Assembly (NCBI GenBank): GCA_958295905.1 | Contig: OY282382.1 | Coordinates: 3,310,001-3,374,000 of the forward strand | Direction of reading: 5' to 3' | DNA from: an uncultured Vicinamibacterales bacterium | GTDB lineage: Bacteria > Acidobacteriota > Vicinamibacteria > Vicinamibacterales > UBA8438 | Length of the DNA stretch: 64,000 nucleotides | In this document: piece after piece, positions 3,435 through 55,378 of the stretch | Layout: every line of letters starts with the position of its first letter | Position numbering within the stretch: the first letter of the stretch is position 1 | Notes under the pieces: generated by a model | What the model saw: only the letters and a program-made list of their open reading frames with translations | What the model was told of the DNA's origin: nothing | The model's database searches: none | Translations under genes and position numbers: made by a program

Positions 3435-3626
3435 CCGCGCCGGTGGGTCGTCATGCCATAATCTTCGTATAGGTGGACTGGAGTCGACGGAGGCAGTCTC
3501 CTGCAGGGGGACTCTTCTGGGTTCGAGGCGGGTTCCCCGATGCCCCACGATGATGGCCTGAACGCCTCGGCCGGACCCGCAGGGCTCTCCTGGGTTCGAG
3601 GCGGGTTCCCCGATGCCCTGATATTG
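3431..3626. repeat. A2 repeat element carrying a repeat-spacer-repeat duplication
   Basis: Diverged relative of element A (copies at 10690 and 22375). It starts at the CTAG that contains the ribA stop codon. Inside it, a 36-bp segment at 3510-3545 recurs at 3583-3618 (34 of 36 identical), separated by 37 bp of unrelated sequence. The same repeat sequence is duplicated around a different spacer at 10754-10861, and is single at 22440. The rest of the gap to 3753 shows no gene. Confidence 0.75.
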
Positions 3627-4469: not shown

Positions 4470-4579
4470 CGTCACGCGGCGCCCGTCGGCGCGGAGCCGC
4501 TGTCGGCGCCTCGGGGCGGATGGGCACGCGCCAAGCTGGACGCGTCACGCGGCGCCCGTCGGCGCGGAGCCGCTGTCGG
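4470..4579. repeat. Repeat-spacer-repeat duplication (37-36-37 bp)
   Basis: An identical 37-bp segment occurs at 4470-4506 and 4543-4579 with 36 bp of unrelated sequence between. The second copy spans the stop codon and last codons of the creatininase-like gene, so the 3' end of that gene is duplicated downstream. Same geometry as about ten other loci in the window. Confidence 0.85.
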
Positions 4580-5831: not shown

Positions 5832-5952
5832 GCCACGGACCGATATCGTATCTGATGCGGGCGGTGCTGACCGCATGCGCAACATCAGGACATCAGGAAG
5901 GGTCTGGAAGGGGAGCCACGGACCGATATCGTATCTGATGCGGGCGGTGCTG
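5832..5952. repeat. Repeat-spacer-repeat duplication (38-45-38 bp)
   Basis: An identical 38-bp segment at 5832-5869 and 5915-5952 is separated by 45 bp. The segment contains the ATG and first codons (M-R-A-V-L) of the PIN remnant that follows, so the start region of that broken gene has been duplicated. Confidence 0.85.
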
Positions 5953-10689: not shown

Positions 10690-10868
10690 CAGCCGCGCCA
10701 TGATTTTCGGATAGACGGATTGGAGTCGAAAGATGCGATTCTCCTGCATGGGGGACTCTCTCGGGTTCGAGGCGAGTTCCCCGATGTCCCCAGTCAGCGT
10801 GGGATGCCCCTGGCGGACCTGGAAGACTCTCTCGGGTTCGAGGCGGGTTCCCCGATGCCCCTGATATC
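10690..10868. repeat. A2 repeat element with repeat-spacer-repeat (38-33-37 bp)
   Basis: Related to the element at 3431. The segment at 10754-10791 recurs at 10825-10861 with one mismatch and one gap. The 33-bp spacer (10792-10824) begins with 22 bases that are identical to the right end of element C and its flank at 26909-26930, while the spacer of the 3431 copy is different. Confidence 0.8.
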
Positions 10869-14004: not shown

Positions 14005-14283
14005 CGGGCCGGGATGCCGACGGCGGAGACGGGTGGCGGGGCGCAGGCGCGCGCGCATCGACCGCCTCACCGCAGCAACCCACGCGGCCATGAGGTGGTC
14101 CTGCGCAGGCGCTCACAGGGTGGTCCGGCGGCAGGCGGGGACCGCGAACCGACGGTCTTCGGGCCGGGATGCCGACGGCGGAGACGGGTGGCGGGGCGCA
14201 GGCGCGGTGGTCCTGCGCAGGTGCCCGCGGGTTGGTCCGGCGGCAGGCGGGGACCGCGAAACCAACGGTCTTCGGGCCGGGAT
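14005..14283. repeat. Imperfect tandem repeats, period about 112 bp
   Basis: A 47-bp block at about 14005-14052 recurs at 14159-14205. A second block of about 75 bp starting GTGGTCCTGCGCAGG at 14095 recurs at 14207. The arrangement occupies the spacer between the NfeD-like and flotillin genes; no coding frame is convincing. Confidence 0.7.
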
Positions 14284-14322
14284 GGAACGTCCCGGGACGG
14301 TGACGCAGGAGGCAGGTGACGG

Positions 14323-16920: not shown

Positions 16921-17079
16921 GGAGCGCCGGAGCGCAAGCCGTGCGCGCGCCTGGTGCCCCTGGACCCGCCGCCGGAGCGCGTCCTCGGACGCTATCGCGA
17001 GCGTGACGGCGACGTGCCGGACTCGGTCTTCGAGCCCCTCGACGGCGCGGAACTGGCGGCCTGGGAGGGCGGCGAATGA
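16921..17079 (+). pseudogene. 5'-truncated Phd/YefM-like antitoxin
   Basis: The frame ending in TGA at 17077-17079 encodes ERKPCARLVPLDPPPERVLG, then RYRERDGDVPDSVFEPLDGA and ELAAWEGGE. That matches the C-terminal half of Phd/YefM-type antitoxins (K-P-x-A-R-L-V-P, then a toxin-binding tail ending W-E). The stop overlaps the toxin start (ATGA), the usual operon arrangement. The DNA-binding N-terminal half is gone: an element A fragment abuts the remnant and no start codon is in frame. The toxin downstream may therefore be uncontrolled or silent. Confidence 0.75.
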
Positions 17080-17537
17080 ACCCGCTGCTGGATACCTGCA
17101 CCCTGCGGTGGGCGTGGGGCCGGCCCGGACGGCTCAGCCCCCGGCTGCAGGGACTGCTGCGGGATCCGGACAACCAAGTGTGGATCAGCGCCGCGAGCGC
17201 CTGGGAGTTGGCGACCAAGCACCGCGTCGGCAGGTTTCCGGGCGGTGGGCCCATCCTTGCCGAGTGGGATGATCGTCTCGCCCGCGACGGCTTTCGCCCG
17301 TTGGCGATCTCGTCCCGCCACGCGTTGCGGGCCGGCTCGCTGCCCGGCGCGCATCGGGACTCGTTCGACCGCATGATCGCCGCTCGGAGCCTGATCGAGG
17401 CGCTCCGGGTCGCGACGCCCGATGCGGAAATCGCGGCGCTCGGCGCCGATACGGTCTGGTGGTTTCCGGCGGATGCGGAGGCCGCCGGGTCGGGCCCGCC
17501 GGCTACAGGTAGCGCCGCGGTACGTCGAGGAGCCTGA
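17076..17537 (+). CDS. PIN-domain ribonuclease toxin (VapC-like), orphaned
   Basis: 153 residues. PIN features visible: PLLDTCTLRWAW at the N-terminus (the first Asp; most relatives have D-T-H), ISAASAWELATKHRVGR with the conserved Glu, GSLPGAHRDSFDRMIAARSL with the later acidic residues, and a weak C-terminal strand. The family cleaves tRNA or rRNA. Its antitoxin is truncated. The normal end (near ...VWWF) is followed by about 15 extra residues encoded by a duplicated segment (17498-17533), so the C-terminus is abnormal. Activity is doubtful. Confidence 0.75.
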   Translation: MNPLLDTCTLRWAWGRPGRLSPRLQGLLRDPDNQVWISAASAWELATKHRVGRFPGGGPILAEWDDRLARDGFRPLAISSRHALRAGSLPGAHRDSFDRMIAARSLIEALRVATPDAEIAALGADTVWWFPADAEAAGSGPPATGSAAVRRGA

Positions 17538-17605
17538 TGAAGCCTGTGAATTTATCGGTCCGTCTTTTGGCCGGCTACAGGTAGCGCCGCGGTACGTCGA
17601 GGAGC
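17498..17605. repeat. Repeat-spacer-repeat duplication (36-36-36 bp) with AT-rich spacer
   Basis: An identical 36-bp segment at 17498-17533 and 17570-17605 is separated by 36 bp (17534-17569). The second copy includes the final codons and stop of the minus-strand methyltransferase; the first copy lies in the PIN tail. The spacer is only about 44 percent G+C, unlike everything around it. Confidence 0.9.
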
Positions 17606-18822
17606 ACCCGCCGACGCCTCAGCTCCGCGTAGCGCGGGCCGAGCCGCCGCGGATCGATCGGGCCGGACAGATCCGCGTCCACGGTCACGCGGTCGGGAAG
17701 ATAGCGCCGGCAGTCGCCGAACTCGGCCTCGTACTCGGGGGTCGGAAACCTCAGGGTCAACGCCGACCGGCCGCCGCGGACCTCGACCGTGTAGAGCGGG
17801 TTCACCGCGAGGACCCCGGCGACCCCGGCCGGCGGCGGGGCCGGGAGGGCCCGGCGTATTCCGTCGCGGCGGCTGGCGACGAGGGTCAGGGAAGGCTCGC
17901 CGCGAAGCTGATCCGGCGCGCGGTCGTCCGCCAGATCGACGCGCGCTTCCTCGATCAGCGCGTCGAGCAGCCGGGCGTCGCTGAACAGGGCGGGTTGGAG
18001 CGGCGCGAACAGATCGCGGTAGGCGGACGGGCTGAGGGGGTCGCCGGCGGAGACGTTCTCGCCCGCCGAGCTGTGGAGGTGCGGCAGCGCGATGATGCCG
18101 TCGTGACGCGTGACGCGCATCATCTCGTCGGCGCACAGCCGCTTGTGCCAGATGTAGGGGAAGGCGTCCATGAGGACGACCAGCGGGAAGCGGTCCGTCA
18201 CGAACGGCAGGGGGGCGTCGGCGCTGCAGCACACGCCGTCGGCGCCGGGCGCGGTGAGGTGGGTCGCGAGCCACAGCTTCCGGAAGTAGAGGTCGGCGAT
18301 GACCGTCCCCGCGCCCGGCGCGTTGCCGCCGGGGCCGGCGAGCGCGTGCGCCAGGTGTCCGGCGCCCCCGCAGAGGTCGAGCCAGGGGCCGCCGTGCTGC
18401 GCCGCGGCTGGGCCGAGCGCCCGCAGGAGAGCTTCGGCGGCGACGAACGTGGGGTCCGAGAAACGGTTCAGGAAGTATGTGCCCTCGGCGTCCGGGGCGA
18501 GCCGCGCGGCCGCCTCGCGATAGGTCAGCACGGCCGCTTCGTAGGTGCGCGAGAGATCCGCGGCTTGCGCGCGGTCGACGTCGAGGGCGGTCGCCAGCGC
18601 CCCGTTGCGGTCGCCGCGCTCCAGGGCGTGCATGGCGTCGCGCGTCCGGTCGTCGGCGAGCAGGATCGGAATGCCCGCGACGACGGGGAAGGCGCAGCAC
18701 TCGCAGCCGAGCACGCCGGCCTCGACGCGGCTCTCGGTGCGGGCGAGGGCCGCGTTGTCGACGAGCCGCAGCCGGGTCCCGCAGAACGGGCACCGCATTC
18801 CGTCGAGAAGCGTGAGCTGCAT
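17575..18822 (-). CDS. SAM-dependent methyltransferase with N-terminal zinc-ribbon-like segment
   Basis: 415 residues. The N-terminus has MRCPFCGTRL and VLGCECCAFPVVAGIPILL, a Trm112-like/zinc-ribbon segment often fused to methyltransferases of this type. The SAM-binding block WLDLCGGAGHLAHALAG lies near residue 130, and the region DRFPLVVLMDAFPYIWHKR near 200. The C-terminal third is not recognisable. It lies 14 bp downstream of the PIG-L deacetylase gene on the same strand, so they form an operon and may act on one glycan or natural product. The 3' end is duplicated downstream. Confidence 0.75.
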   Translation of the reverse strand: MQLTLLDGMRCPFCGTRLRLVDNAALARTESRVEAGVLGCECCAFPVVAGIPILLADDRTRDAMHALERGDRNGALATALDVDRAQAADLSRTYEAAVLTYREAAARLAPDAEGTYFLNRFSDPTFVAAEALLRALGPAAAQHGGPWLDLCGGAGHLAHALAGPGGNAPGAGTVIADLYFRKLWLATHLTAPGADGVCCSADAPLPFVTDRFPLVVLMDAFPYIWHKRLCADEMMRVTRHDGIIALPHLHSSAGENVSAGDPLSPSAYRDLFAPLQPALFSDARLLDALIEEARVDLADDRAPDQLRGEPSLTLVASRRDGIRRALPAPPPAGVAGVLAVNPLYTVEVRGGRSALTLRFPTPEYEAEFGDCRRYLPDRVTVDADLSGPIDPRRLGPRYAELRRRRVLLDVPRRYL

Positions 18823-18836
18823 GGCCTTGATCCCGC

Positions 18837-19715
18837 TCAGCCGCCCACCGCGGACCCGGCGCCGCCGGCATCCGGGGCGGCCAGTCGATCGACGATCGTG
18901 TCGCCCTGCGCTCCGACCTCGGAGCGCCGGTAATGTTCGGCGCCGAGCAGCCGCGCCGCGTCGTCCTCGTCGACGAACCGCAGCGCGCAGTCGTCGAACT
19001 GGCTGCGGTGGCAGCGCAGCGCCCGGAGCTTCTGCGCGGCGTGGTCGCGCGCGTGCACGACGAGGGTCGGTGCAGGCGCCCCGGCGCCGAACGCGTCCGC
19101 GTCGGCGACGCCGAGGATGGAGCGCGCGAACGGGCGCGGGAGCCGGCGCGCGGCGCTCACGCGGGCGGCGTGGTCGACGACCGCCCGCATCGAACCGGGC
19201 GGCACGGTCACGTGGAACAACGCCGGCGCCCGGCCGCCCAGGGCGGCCACCACCGCGGTGGTCCGCTCGTGCGCCGCGATGTGGTCCGGGTGCCAGTACA
19301 GCCCGTCCGCGTCGAAGGTGATCACCACGTCGGGGCCGGTGCGCAGAATCTCGTCCAGGATGTCGGCCTCGAGCCGCGCCGGGAGAATCCACGGCAGCAT
19401 CCCGTCCTCGTGGTCGAGCAGGCGGACGCGGGCGATGCCGAGCATGCGCGCCGCGGCCTCGAGCTCGCCGGCGCGCACCTGCCGCAGGGGACGGGCTCCG
19501 GGCCGGGGCGCGCCGCCGCCCGTTTGTCCGTGCTCTCCGTGGGTCAGGCAGAGCAGCGACACACGCACCCCGAGGGCCGCGCACCAGGCGAGGAGCCCGC
19601 CGCTCGCGAGGGACTCGTCGTCCGGGTGGGCGAATACCGCAAGCAACGCGGGCGGGCTGCCGGCCGCGGATTCGGGCCGCGGCGCGCCGTCGGGACAGTT
19701 CTCCCGTCCACTCAC
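18837..19715 (-). CDS. PIG-L/LmbE-family deacetylase
   Basis: Zn-dependent N-deacetylase of the PIG-L family, 292 residues. Metal-site motifs are clear: LLAVFAHPDDESLASGG near the N-terminus and the LYWHPDHIAAHERT block near residue 140. Relatives deacetylate GlcNAc-containing glycans, mycothiol/bacillithiol precursors or antibiotics. It sits upstream of a methyltransferase and near two glycosyltransferases, fitting a glycan-modification cluster. I chose GTG 19715 (VSGRENCPDG); GTG 19763 is an alternative that reaches into the element E region. Confidence 0.85.
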   Translation of the reverse strand: MSGRENCPDGAPRPESAAGSPPALLAVFAHPDDESLASGGLLAWCAALGVRVSLLCLTHGEHGQTGGGAPRPGARPLRQVRAGELEAAARMLGIARVRLLDHEDGMLPWILPARLEADILDEILRTGPDVVITFDADGLYWHPDHIAAHERTTAVVAALGGRAPALFHVTVPPGSMRAVVDHAARVSAARRLPRPFARSILGVADADAFGAGAPAPTLVVHARDHAAQKLRALRCHRSQFDDCALRFVDEDDAARLLGAEHYRRSEVGAQGDTIVDRLAAPDAGGAGSAVGG

Positions 19716-26691: not shown

Positions 26692-26921
26692 CATCCCACG
26701 CTCCGCCACCGCCGTGCGCAGGCGGAATCGTGGCGGTCCTGGGGCTCCGGACGTGCGGAATCGTGGGGCTCACGCGGCGCCGGCCGGTCGGCAAGACGGT
26801 GGCGACGTCTTAGCGGCCGCGAACCCCATGTCGCGCGTGCGCACGCGGCGCCGGCCGGTCGGCAAGACGGTGGCGACCCCTCGAATCGGGGCGGGCCGTC
26901 ACGCGCAGTCAGCGTGGGATG
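26692..26921. mobile_element. Element C copy 2, interrupted by a 36-35-36 bp duplication
   Basis: Ends CATCCCACGCT and AGCGTGGGATG as in the other copies, but 230 bp long instead of 161-162. The excess is explained by an identical 36-bp segment at 26771-26806 and 26842-26877 around a unique 35-bp spacer (26807-26841). All four other element C copies have this segment once, so they show the pre-insertion state. Confidence 0.9.
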
Positions 26922-30274: not shown

Positions 30275-31535
30275 GGTTGCCCTCGGGCAGCAGGAGACGG
30301 AAGCTGACGGCGACGCGCCGGTCGCGCTGGCCGAGCCGCCGGACACGGCAGCTCGCGGCCCGGCGCCGGTCGCGCTGGCCGAGCCGCCGCCGGGCAACGG
30401 CGGGGGCGCCGCGGCAGGCCACCCGGGCCGAGACGGCGCCGCCGCGCTGGCCGAGCCGCCGCCGGGCAACGGCGGGGGGCGGCCGGTCGAGGCGGACGTG
30501 GCGGCGGAGGCCGCCGCGCCGGTGAAGTTGCCGGTGTTGAAGGCGGCCGACTTCGCCAGCGACCAGGACGTGCGGTGGTGTCCCGGATGCGGGGACTACG
30601 CCATTCTCGCGCAGATGAAGAAGATGCTGCCGTCGCTCGGCGTGCCGCGCGAGAACATCGTCTTCATCTCCGGAATCGGGTGCTCGAGCCGGTTTCCGTA
30701 CTACATGAACACCTACGGCATCCACAGCATCCACGGCCGGGCGCCGGCTTTCGCGACCGGGCTCAAGGCGGCGCGGCCGGATCTGATGGTGTGGGTCATC
30801 ACCGGCGACGGGGACGGGCTGAGCATCGGCGGCAATCACCTCATGCACGCCATCCGCCGCAACCTGGACGTCAACATCGTGCTCTTCAACAACCGCATCT
30901 ACGGTTTGACGAAGGGCCAGTACTCGCCGACGTCGCCGCTCGGCAAGAAGACCAAGACGTCGCCGATGGGGGCCATCGACAACCCCCTGCACCCTCTGTC
31001 CATCGCCATCGGCTGCGAGGCCACGTTCGTGGCGCGCTCCATCGACACGCACATCAAGCACCTCGAGAAAGTGTTGCGGCGCGCCGCCGAGCACCGGGGC
31101 ACCGCCTTCGTCGAGGTCTATCAGAACTGCAACGTGTTCAACGACAACGCCTGGCAATACGCCAGCGACCGCCGGACCAAGTCCGAGCACACCATCGAGC
31201 TCGAGCACGGGGCGCCGCTGGTCTTCGGCCACGACCGGCAGAAGGGCATCCGCCTCAACGGTCTCGAGCCCGAGGTGGTCGCGCTGGGGAACGGCACGAC
31301 CGAGGCCGGCCTGCTGGTGCACGACGAGAAGGCGTCCGAGCCGAGTCTGGCCTATCTGCTGAGCCGGCTCCGCCACGAAGACGGGTTCCCGGAGCCGATC
31401 GGCGTGTTCCGGGCCATCGACGCGCCGCGGTATGAAGAGGAGCTGGCGGCGCAGGTGGCGTCCGCCCGCGCGCGCTCGGGCGGGGGGGATCTGAACGCGC
31501 TCTTCAACTCGGGCGAGACCTGGACGGTTTCATGA
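30240..31535 (+). CDS. korB: 2-oxoacid:ferredoxin oxidoreductase, beta subunit
   Basis: Thiamine diphosphate and 4Fe-4S subunit. The cluster cysteines are visible in RWCPGCGDYAI, FISGIGCSSRFP and VYQNCNVFND; the TPP site is VITGDGDGLSIGGNHLMHA with NNRIYGLTKGQYSP. The frame from ATG 30240 overlaps korA by 35 bp and has a ~86-residue N-terminal extension of repeats (PVALAEPP and ALAEPPPGNGGG units). GTG 30498 gives a 345-residue protein of usual family length and may be the true start. Partner of KorA; last bases overlap the zinc-ribbon CBS gene by 4 bp. Confidence 0.9.
   Translation: MSYSRLESWWRRVALGQQETEADGDAPVALAEPPDTAARGPAPVALAEPPPGNGGGAAAGHPGRDGAAALAEPPPGNGGGRPVEADVAAEAAAPVKLPVLKAADFASDQDVRWCPGCGDYAILAQMKKMLPSLGVPRENIVFISGIGCSSRFPYYMNTYGIHSIHGRAPAFATGLKAARPDLMVWVITGDGDGLSIGGNHLMHAIRRNLDVNIVLFNNRIYGLTKGQYSPTSPLGKKTKTSPMGAIDNPLHPLSIAIGCEATFVARSIDTHIKHLEKVLRRAAEHRGTAFVEVYQNCNVFNDNAWQYASDRRTKSEHTIELEHGAPLVFGHDRQKGIRLNGLEPEVVALGNGTTEAGLLVHDEKASEPSLAYLLSRLRHEDGFPEPIGVFRAIDAPRYEEELAAQVASARARSGGGDLNALFNSGETWTVS
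30315..30478. repeat. In-frame direct repeats at the korB 5' end, incl. 36-36-36 bp unit
   Basis: An identical 36-bp segment at 30371-30406 and 30443-30478 is separated by 36 bp (period 72, in frame). A 27-bp part of the same segment also occurs at 30315-30341 (period 48). If translated these give ALAEPP repeats in the KorB extension; if korB starts at GTG 30498 they are non-coding. Confidence 0.85.
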
Positions 31536-39827: not shown

Positions 39828-40418
39828 ATGCGTGACCGTTGGTACGGTGACAACCGCGACGTCGTGAAGTGGAGCGCCGTCGTGCATCTCGCGCGCCGCG
39901 AGGCGATCCCGGACGTTCTGCATGCGGCCCTGTATCGGCCGGATGACGAGTGGCCGCGGCTCGCCACCGCGCGCGGACCGGCGGCGTTGCCGGTCGAGGT
40001 CGTCCGCCACTTTCGCGACCTCGACGACCTGCAACGGCTTGCCGCGGCCACCGCATTGCGTATCGAGACGGTGAAGGAGCCGTTTCTCGATCGATCCGCC
40101 TACTTCCGGCGCGTCTGCGAGCGGGTCCGAGCGTACCGGGCCCCGGTGTTGGTGCTGCTCGACCCCGACACCGGACTCGCCCCGGATGGCGGCGGCGGTG
40201 CTCAACACGTGACGTCGGCCGAAGTGACCGCGATCTTCGCCGCGTTGCGGCCGGGCGACCTCCTCGCCTGCTATCAGCACGCGCGGCGGCAGAAGGACTG
40301 GCGCGGCCGGGCCCGGCGCGCCTTCGCGAACGCCCCCGGCGTGCCCTCGTTCGAGGTGGAGGTCCTGTGCTCGGACCTGGCCCGCGACGTGCTCATGCTG
40401 GCGGTGAAGAAGGGATAG
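39828..40418 (+). CDS. Conserved-looking protein of unknown function
   Basis: 196 residues starting MRDRWYGDNRDVVKWSAVVH. Later blocks are APVLVLLDPDTGLAP near residue 105 and RPGDLLACYQHARRQKDW near 145. The layout resembles a family of uncharacterised proteins with a L-D-P-D-T-G-L motif that may have a nucleotidyl- or methyltransferase-like fold; I do not know a function. ATG 39828. The last 9 bases lie in a 36-bp segment that is duplicated 39 bp downstream. Confidence 0.6.
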   Translation: MRDRWYGDNRDVVKWSAVVHLARREAIPDVLHAALYRPDDEWPRLATARGPAALPVEVVRHFRDLDDLQRLAAATALRIETVKEPFLDRSAYFRRVCERVRAYRAPVLVLLDPDTGLAPDGGGGAQHVTSAEVTAIFAALRPGDLLACYQHARRQKDWRGRARRAFANAPGVPSFEVEVLCSDLARDVLMLAVKKG

Positions 40419-40520
40419 CAGAAGTGCGGTTGGGGTCGGTGCTGCGTTCCTGCCGCGCATGGTGGGCAACTCGGATTTCACGCGAAGGGATGGCAGCGGT
40501 GCGGTTGGGGTCGGTGCTGC
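40410..40520. repeat. Repeat-spacer-repeat duplication (36-39-36 bp)
   Basis: A 36-bp segment at 40410-40445 recurs at 40485-40520 (33 of 36 identical). The first copy includes the stop of the gene at 39828; the second contains the ATG (40490) of the next gene at the position where the first copy has ATA. Confidence 0.8.
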
Positions 40521-54796: not shown

Positions 54797-54958
54797 CCTC
54801 CCACGCTCCGCCACCGCCGTGCGCAGGCGGAATCGTGATGGGTCCCGGGGCTCCGGACGTGCGGAATCGTGGGTCTCACGCGGCGCCGGCCGGTCGGCAA
54901 GACGGTGGCGACCCCTCGAATCGGGGGGCGGGCCGTCACGCGCAGTCCGCGTGGGATG
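54797..54958. mobile_element. Element C copy 4 (162 bp)
   Basis: Ends CCTCCCACGCT (one change from the consensus) and the CGTGGGATG block. Forms a tandem pair with copy 5: the surrounding GGCATCCGGGC sequence is repeated at 54781, 54964 and partly 55147, so a unit of 183 bp has been duplicated. Confidence 0.85.
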
Positions 54959-54979
54959 CTCCTGGCATCCGGGCAGGGG

Positions 54980-55140
54980 CATCCCACGCTCCGCCACCGC
55001 CGTGCGCAGGCGGAATCGTGATGGGTCTTGGGGCTCCGGACGTGCGGAATCGTGGGTCTCACGCGGCGCCGGCCGGTCGGCAAGACGGTGGCGACCCCTC
55101 GAATCGGGGGCGGGCCGTCACGCGCAGTCCGCGTGGGATG
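54980..55140. mobile_element. Element C copy 5 (161 bp)
   Basis: Ends CATCCCACGCT and GCGTGGGATG. Nearly identical to copy 4, as expected if the 183-bp unit was duplicated recently. Confidence 0.9.
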
Positions 55141-55196
55141 CTCCTGACATCCGGGACATTCAGGTTGATCGGACGCCGGCCCTGACGGAGAATGCT

Positions 55197-55378
55197 CCGA
55201 GCCGTGGTGATTTGCGCGGGCGTGCGGCGAGACGTGTCCGGATCCATCGGCGGCCGGACAGCCGGATCGACGCCGAGCCGCGGTGATTTGCGCGGGCGTG
55301 CGGCGAGACGGGTCGCAGGTTCCGGGTGCCAGTGGTGTCTACTGGGAGGTGACTGCGCGTGGGCGTGCGGGGAGACGG
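55197..55378. repeat. Repeat-spacer-repeat with two spacers (38-38-38-33-degenerate)
   Basis: A 38-bp segment at 55197-55234 recurs at 55273-55310 with one mismatch, after a 38-bp spacer. A third, degenerate copy occurs at about 55344-55378 after 33 bp. This is the only locus in the window with more than one spacer, and its last repeat is degenerate. It lies in the region before the cytochrome/monooxygenase-like gene. Confidence 0.8.

What the first reader, a model, noticed from the sequence alone, without database searches (positions are those of the whole stretch)
17498..17605. AT-rich 36-bp spacer between perfect 36-bp repeats
The spacer 17534-17569 is about 44 percent G+C in a genome near 70 percent, unlike both flanks. 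This suggests foreign origin of the inserted segment rather than local slippage. The duplication also altered the 3' end of the PIN toxin.
Basis: partly seen in the sequence, partly recalled or inferred. Interest (0 to 1): 0.7.

Follow-up and report, generated by a model that had tools for sequence, protein, structure and literature searches.

The report
Stray CRISPR spacers scattered genome-wide
The odd repeat-spacer-repeat beside a toxin gene looks like one of many misplaced CRISPR memory inserts in this bacterium: a CRISPR insertion enzyme seems to have pasted foreign-looking 36-letter pieces at many sites outside its proper arrays, which shows how new CRISPR arrays could begin.

Summary
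In detail: a perfect 36-bp direct repeat (17498-17533, 17570-17605) around a 36-bp, 44% GC spacer. Both sister genomes lack spacer and duplication, so the event is "duplicate 36 bp of target, insert about 36 bp of new DNA", the signature of CRISPR spacer integration outside an array. It is not isolated. In 1.644 Mb of the genome (26%) I found 76 such units outside the CRISPR arrays, each with a repeat of about 36 bp and an unrelated gap of about 37 bp. Their period (mean 73.2, sd 1.7) matches the genome's own type I-G arrays (73.8 and 73.7). At one dispersed element, eight loci carry eight different 35-40 bp inserts at exactly the same base, each with the same 36-bp duplication, against 99 uninterrupted copies. 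Some sites grew to 3-4 repeats. Two Cas1-negative relatives gave 0 units in 300 kb. Best explanation: off-target Cas1-Cas2 integration, probably by the type I-G Cas4/1 system, whose repeat is 36 bp. Off-target integration is known; this density, extrapolating to about 290 events, is what appears new. Whether any unit makes working crRNA is untested.

The parts
17498..17533 (.). Repeat copy 1 (duplicated target, left); now codes part of the C-terminal extension of the PIN protein
   Evidence: 100% identical; ORF; single copy in sister alignments
17534..17569 (.). 36-bp spacer, 44% GC, absent from both sister genomes; contains the TGA (17535-17537) that now ends the PIN frame
17570..17605 (.). 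Repeat copy 2 = original 3' end of the convergent gene (stop 17575-17577, minus strand)
17076..17537 (+). PIN-domain protein (Pfam PF01850, E 5.3e-7), probable toxin of a toxin-antitoxin pair, with extended C-terminus compared with sisters
17575..18936 (-). 3' part of the convergent gene whose end supplied the target; conserved in Vicinamibacteria (76% identity), no Pfam family at 1e-3; methyltransferase-like by eye only
26771..26877 (.). Second unit in the window: 36-bp repeat (26771-26806, 26842-26877), 35-bp spacer; one of eight at the same base of a dispersed element
4470..4579 (.). Unit: perfect 37-bp repeats, 36-bp gap
30371..30478 (.). Unit: perfect 36-bp repeats, 36-bp gap; related shorter repeat at 30315/30363
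40409..40520 (.). Unit: 37-bp repeats, 3 mismatches (older), 38-bp gap
55197..55310 (.). Unit: 38-bp repeats, 1 mismatch, 38-bp gap
3512..3618 (.). Unit: 34-bp repeats, 1 mismatch, 39-bp gap; sits in a dispersed repeat
10754..10857 (.). Doubtful unit: 33-bp repeats, 38-bp gap; the gap itself has 23-25 base matches elsewhere in the genome, so it may be nested repeats

Best explanation
The feature is an off-target CRISPR spacer integration (a one-spacer 'neo-CRISPR'). A Cas1-Cas2 integrase joined a captured prespacer of about 36 bp to both ends of a 36-bp stretch of chromosome; fill-in of the staggered joints duplicated that stretch on either side of the new spacer. Shown by sequence: target duplication of 36 bp, unrelated insert of spacer length, empty sites, many more events of the same size in the same genome, re-use of one exact target, sites with several spacers. 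Inferred: that Cas1-Cas2 did it, and that the type I-G Cas4/1-Cas2 beside array A is the main culprit (its repeat is 36 bp; array B's is 37 bp, array E's about 28 bp). Inferred, without a direct match: that the inserts came from mobile elements. Here the integration hit the 3' end of a convergent gene next to a PIN toxin gene, leaving the convergent gene whole and giving the toxin frame a new end.
For: (1) Anatomy and empty site: against both sisters the model with one repeat copy and no spacer scores best (G001 428 against 402, 368, 358, 343; G002 279 against 248, 236, 212, 211). (2) Genome-wide class: in 1.644 Mb, repeats of 32-42 bp number 77 at periods 69-79, against 48 at the 110 other periods tested (4.8 expected, Poisson p 2e-63); 39 of 49 direct repeats of 36-37 bp have period 69-79. 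Counts by batch after one filter: window 8 in 64 kb, loci 14 in 380 kb, later stretches 54 in 1.2 Mb. (3) Same ruler as the host's arrays: unit period 73.16 sd 1.72; array A 73.77 sd 1.87 (88 repeats of 36 bp), array B 73.70 sd 1.73 (199 repeats of 37 bp); KS p 0.16 and 0.18; GC spread of gaps like that of array spacers. Duplication length among perfect units with repeat >=36 fits 36 rather than 37 (ML fraction 0.94). (4) Hot spot: eight loci of a dispersed element have different inserts of 35-40 bp at the same base with the same 36-bp duplication; 99 copies uninterrupted. (5) Inserts rarely match the sampled genome: of 84 queried, near full-length matches elsewhere for 2, local duplicates for 2 more. 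(6) Sites with 3-4 repeats and shifting register. (7) Three cas1 genes; array A beside a Cas4g/Cas1g fusion (815 bits), Cas2, Cas3g, Csx17, Csb1, closest solved structure a Cas4/Cas1 fusion, 7mi4, E 3.6e-222. (8) Two Cas1-negative relatives: 0 units in 200 kb and 0 in 100 kb. (9) Published work on a type I-G Cas4/1 saw 60-70% of spacer-side integration at the correct site and smears suggesting nonspecific sites (PMC10504553, section 7 read).
Against: No protospacer found for this spacer (76/78), nor for the four others tried in viral contigs or phages (best an E 0.4 hit to a phage terminase gene). Relatives with cas1 do not all show the excess: G018 0 in 100 kb, G033 0 in 160 kb, G028 1 (tandem-like) in 120 kb, G023 2 in 120 kb; sisters G001 2 in 225 kb and G002, with no cas1 found, 2 in 166 kb. 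So a cas1 gene alone does not explain the density, and two sister units are in a genome without detected cas1. No hairpin preference of targets and only a weak end preference, G or C at 91% of repeat ends, so what guides the enzyme is unknown. Some listed units are doubtful (about 5 expected by chance; U3320754, U5007118, U3052372 have gaps repeated nearby or elsewhere).
Confidence: 0.9

Rival explanations
1. Local rearrangement: slippage or template switching duplicated 36 bp across an existing AT-rich intergenic stretch.
For: A short perfect direct repeat alone is compatible with it; G000 is rich in repeats (235 direct repeats of >=28 bp at periods 40-160 in 1.644 Mb).
Against: Spacer absent from both sisters; model with the spacer ancestral scores lower against both; at the hot spot the uninterrupted copies lack any insert and the eight inserts all differ; the period peak at 69-79 has no reason under this model.
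Confidence: 0.04
2. Footprint or product of a transposable element with a 36-bp target duplication, not CRISPR.
For: Target duplication plus insert is the general form of a transposition product; the hot spot lies in a dispersed element.
Against: The inserts are 35-40 bp, mutually unrelated, and have no counterpart elsewhere in the sampled genome in nearly all cases; I know of no element with such duplications (recall); lengths equal those of the host's own CRISPR arrays.
Confidence: 0.04
3. Same off-target integration, but mainly by system B (Cas4, Cas1c-like, Cas2; 37-bp repeats) rather than by the Cas4/1 fusion of system A.
For: B has the largest array (199 repeats) and the sister with only one detected cas1, in a 672-residue frame, shows few units (2 in 225 kb); period distribution fits B about as well as A.
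Against: Perfect units fit a 36-bp duplication rather than 37 (ML fraction 0.94); all eight hot-spot duplications are 36 bp.
Confidence: 0.25
4. Leftover of a canonical CRISPR array at this place (degenerate array).
For: Repeat-spacer-repeat form and length.
Against: The repeat is the coding end of a conserved gene, is present once in the sister alignment, and occurs nowhere else in G000.
Confidence: 0.02

Closest known systems
Non-canonical (off-target) spacer integration, 'spontaneous CRISPR loci generation' (Nivala, Shipman and Church 2018, Nat Microbiol; paper not held; seen only as a reference and a citing sentence in PMC9456107; content otherwise recalled)
   Same: A spacer-sized insert flanked by a duplicated, repeat-sized piece of chromosome outside any array; natural cases were reported there as 'several' (recalled).
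   Different: Here 76 candidate units in 26% of one wild genome (about 290 by extrapolation), with one exact target hit eight times and sites of up to 4 repeats; host carries type I-G systems, not the E. coli I-E studied there (recalled).
Type I-G Cas4/1 adaptation module (Cas4/Cas1 fusion structure 7mi4; M. barkeri Cas4/1, PMC10504553)
   Same: G000's fusion aligns over its Cas4 and Cas1 domains to 7mi4 (E 3.6e-222); imperfect site fidelity reported in vitro for the M. barkeri enzyme.
   Different: The parts I read show no in vivo off-target integration by this enzyme; activity of the G000 protein is untested.
Ectopic spacer acquisition inside arrays (S. thermophilus CRISPR3, PMC7999890; listing and abstract start only)
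   Same: Integration at an unusual place.
   Different: That is within a CRISPR array; here it is in ordinary chromosome.

Membership tests
Off-target CRISPR spacer integration (neo-CRISPR) | Repeat-sized duplication of the target on both sides of a spacer-sized insert | tested here: met
Off-target CRISPR spacer integration (neo-CRISPR) | Empty site without insert in relatives or paralogous copies | tested here: met
Off-target CRISPR spacer integration (neo-CRISPR) | Host carries Cas1-Cas2 whose own arrays have the same repeat and spacer lengths | tested here: met
Off-target CRISPR spacer integration (neo-CRISPR) | Insert derives from a mobile element or other foreign DNA | tested here: inconclusive
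   Absent from sisters, rarely found in the sampled genome, but no protospacer
Off-target CRISPR spacer integration (neo-CRISPR) | Target resembles the native leader-repeat site | tested here: inconclusive
   Weak end preference for G or C, one strong hot spot, no hairpin preference
Off-target CRISPR spacer integration (neo-CRISPR) | Dependence on cas1 and cas2 | not testable with these tools
   Only indirect: 0 units in 300 kb of two Cas1-negative relatives, but 2 in 166 kb of G002, which has no detected cas1
Canonical CRISPR array | Repeats identical to a family of array repeats with leader | tested here: not met
   Repeat occurs only at this locus and differs from arrays A, B and E
Insertion sequence or MITE with target duplication | Inserts share sequence or ends | tested here: not met
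   Eight different inserts at one site; no near full-length cross matches between unit gaps except the cases named
Tandem duplication / slippage | Gap resembles the sequence flanking the copies | tested here: not met
   Identity 0.03 and 0.25
Type I-G CRISPR-Cas (system A) | Cas4g/Cas1g fusion, Cas3g, Cas8g1/Csx17, Cas7g/Csb1, Cas2 | tested here: met

The most novel reading that the evidence does not exclude
This lineage keeps a second, dispersed CRISPR memory: a relaxed type I-G integrase seeds spacers all over the chromosome, favours certain dispersed elements as ready-made repeat platforms, lets some grow into 3-4-repeat arrays with shifting register, and a fraction of these are transcribed and used, so that new CRISPR arrays are being born in a wild genome in large numbers.
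Probability: 0.12. Interest if true: 0.93.

Novelty: new variant of a known kind. Interest (0 to 1): 0.8.

Why it matters
How new CRISPR arrays arise is an open question; off-target integration has been the proposed route with only a few natural examples (recalled). A genome that appears to carry hundreds of such events, one exact target used eight times, and sites caught at 1, 2 and 3 spacers turns that idea into something that can be counted and tested. The fact that only 8 of 76 units lie in gene-like reading frames, which cover 55% of the sampled DNA, suggests that adaptation is also an insertional mutagen filtered by selection. It also offers a natural case of poor integrase specificity, useful for learning what normally confines Cas1-Cas2 to the leader, and a warning for tools that call very short arrays.

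Tried and rejected
Hairpin targeting: folding energy of the 36-bp targets was no better than shuffles or random genomic 36-mers (p 0.22), so rejected. Motif search by orientation EM: score 239 against 179 for a single random control set; only a weak preference. Spacer sources: finding's spacer against phages (none), plasmids (one 21-base E=4 hit), viral contigs by three exact pieces (0, 0, and 4 contigs with the 20-mer but 22-25 of 36 overall, all AT-rich); four other units' pieces in viral contigs (0 each) and one in phages (E 0.4 to a terminase gene). Self-origin of spacers: rejected for nearly all. Six short clusters hidden by my array mask were looked at and are ordinary tandem repeats of other periods, not mini-arrays. 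Off-target events of array E's integrase (about 28+37): at most a couple of candidates at period 65, not pursued. First idea that the 694-residue Cas1 frame was an RT-Cas1 fusion: wrong, it is Cas4g/Cas1g.

Rows dropped before counts: of 84 direct repeats with length 30-45 and period 69-79, 77 have length 32-42 and 76 remain after dropping one whose gap resembles its flanks. Ungapped scanning misses units with indels; one such hot-spot locus (162149) was found only.

Literature: searches showed no paper in the held library describing mass off-target integration in a natural genome; the key 2018 paper is not held. Papers: PMC9456107 passages; PMC10504553 abstract, passages and section 7; PMC8616872 passages (nothing on this); others listing only.

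Full report
What was reported and what is there. The window holds a perfect 36-bp direct repeat at 17498-17533 and 17570-17605 around a 36-bp spacer of 44% GC. It is not a chance repeat (0 matches in 100 shuffles) and its repeat exists nowhere else in the 6.3-Mb genome within 3 mismatches. The right copy is the natural 3' end of a minus-strand gene conserved in Vicinamibacteria. The left copy is the new one: it now forms part of the C-terminus of a PIN-domain protein (PF01850) whose frame ends on a TGA inside the spacer. In the sisters G001 and G002 that frame stops at a TAG which here is TGG, 75 bp before the present stop, so two changes, not one, altered the toxin's end.

Empty site. G001 and G002 (Vicinamibacteria MAGs) have no spacer of this kind at the site. 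Removing spacer plus one repeat copy gives the best alignment to both: 428 against at most 402 for G001 and 279 against at most 248 for G002. The spacer is not in either sister genome (28-base piece, up to 3 mismatches). G002 has, in the same intergenic space, a 2.2-kb insertion with an AIPR-family gene (PF10592), with a 25-bp duplicate of the toxin end and a diverged second copy of the convergent gene's end, so the site is an insertion-prone one in general.

The event belongs to a class. A scan of the window for close direct repeats showed others of period 71-76. Stretches totalling 1.644 Mb of the genome, 26%, were then read. They contain three long CRISPR arrays: A, 88 repeats of 36 bp; B, 199 repeats of 37 bp; E, 105 repeats of about 28 bp. 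Outside them, direct repeats of 32-42 bp occur 77 times at periods 69-79 and 48 times at the other 110 periods tested; 4.8 would be expected by that background (p 2e-63). After one filter 76 units remain: 41 without a mismatch between copies, 35 with 1-4, which suggests a spread of ages. Of all 49 direct repeats of 36-37 bp at periods 40-160, 39 have this period. By batch there were 8 in the 64-kb window, 14 in 380 kb, 54 in 1.2 Mb. By extrapolation (76 x 6.297/1.644) the genome holds about 290.

The ruler is that of the CRISPR arrays. Unit period has mean 73.16, sd 1.72; array A 73.77, sd 1.87; array B 73.70, sd 1.73 (KS p 0.16 and 0.18). The GC spread of the gaps is like that of array spacers. 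Allowing for chance extension, the duplication length fits 36 rather than 37 bp (ML fraction 0.94), which points to array A's system. Gaps mostly do not resemble the flanks. Of 84 gaps queried against the sampled 26% of the genome, near full-length matches elsewhere were seen for two (U379847, U3743691), and local duplicates for two more (U5007118, U3052372); a host origin would have given about a quarter.

The hot spot. A dispersed element has 115 core copies in the sample. Sixteen of these form eight adjacent pairs; 99 are uninterrupted. In all eight the interruption is at the same base, the same 36 bp (CACGCGG...GGCGAC) are doubled, and the inserts (35, 36, 38, 38, 38, 38, 39, 40 bp) are all different; both flanks continue essentially as in the uninterrupted consensus (spanning paralogues listed at 90-97% identity). 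One of the eight is in the window at 26771. These read as eight independent insertions with target duplication; no ordinary rearrangement explains them.

Growth. At 155240, 3557908, 3663698 and 3742026 there are three or four repeat copies with two or three different gaps, the register shifting by some bases at each step. This is what repeated integration without a fixed leader would give.

The machinery. Three cas1 genes are present. Array A adjoins a type I-G set with a Cas4g/Cas1g fusion (NF049935, 815 bits), Cas2, Cas3g, Csx17 and Csb1; the closest solved structure is the Cas4/Cas1 fusion 7mi4 (E 3.6e-222). Array B adjoins separate Cas4, a Cas1 nearest Cas1c and Cas2, with Cas3g, Csb2 and Csb1. 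Array E adjoins Csc2, a Cas3'-like helicase, Cas4 and Cas1b-like genes. Catalytic residues were not checked.

Controls and contrary results. Cas1-negative relatives: G005 0 units in 200 kb, G030 0 in 100 kb (Cas1 status, counts). Cas1-positive relatives: G018 0 in 100 kb, G033 0 in 160 kb, G028 1 (a tandem-like case) in 120 kb, G023 2 in 120 kb. Sisters: G001 2 in 225 kb; G002, without detected cas1 in a 440-contig assembly, 2 in 166 kb. Thus the density is peculiar to G000 among the nine genomes scanned, and having cas1 is not enough. For the units as a whole only three of 76 had sister alignments spanning both junctions in the stretches held (U387229, U3000166 and the finding). Targets show no hairpin preference and only weak end preference. 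Only 8 of 76 units lie in gene-like frames, which cover 54.7% of the sample (p 1e-15); either selection or site choice could cause this.

Origin of the spacer. No phage match, an insignificant plasmid match, and no exact 24- or 20-base match in IMG/VR for two pieces. A third piece, 20 bases, is in four AT-rich viral contigs (35-37% GC), three of them from one related gene, with a frame reading DEACEFI in each, but the full spacer agrees at only 22-25 of 36 bases. This is at most a hint of an AT-rich viral coding source.

Conclusion. The finding is best read as off-target CRISPR spacer integration, and the genome as a natural case in which this has happened very often. That Cas1-Cas2 did it is an inference from dimensions, empty sites and hot-spot re-use, which I hold at 0.9; which of the two I-G-like modules is mainly responsible is less sure. 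Off-target integration is known from E. coli and, as recalled, from several natural cases; the scale, the hot spot and the growing mini-arrays were not found described in the literature searches listed under Tried and rejected.

Noticed in passing
G000 arrays: C1:3982379-3997008 (L032/L027), 5238009-5244459 (L031/L026), 4985136-4992176 (L028): Three long CRISPR arrays (199, 88 and 105 repeats) with two type I-G-like systems and one I-D/I-B-like system in one genome.
   Followed up: partly
dispersed element, e.g. window around 26771 and many copies in G000 loci: A dispersed repeat of at least about 150 bp with 115 core copies in 1.644 Mb; nature unknown (no coding or terminal-repeat analysis done).
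   Followed up: partly
L009:1193-3407 (G002): 2.2-kb insertion with an AIPR-family gene at the homologous PIN/convergent-gene site in a sister genome, with a 25-bp duplicate of the toxin end and a diverged copy of the convergent gene's end.
   Followed up: partly
L031:17069-17900 (C1:5237069-5237900): Four unit-like repeats within 0.9 kb just outside the end of array A.
   Followed up: no
window 5832-5952: Perfect 38-bp repeat with 45-bp gap (period 83, gap GC 58%), outside the main period peak; a small bump at periods 83-84 was seen.
   Followed up: no
window 14005-14290 and 54799-55146: Complex overlapping direct repeats of longer period (112-183 bp).
   Followed up: no
L026:8324-9547: UPF0236-family (transposase-like by recall) gene next to the Cas2 gene of system A (PF06782).
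   Followed up: no
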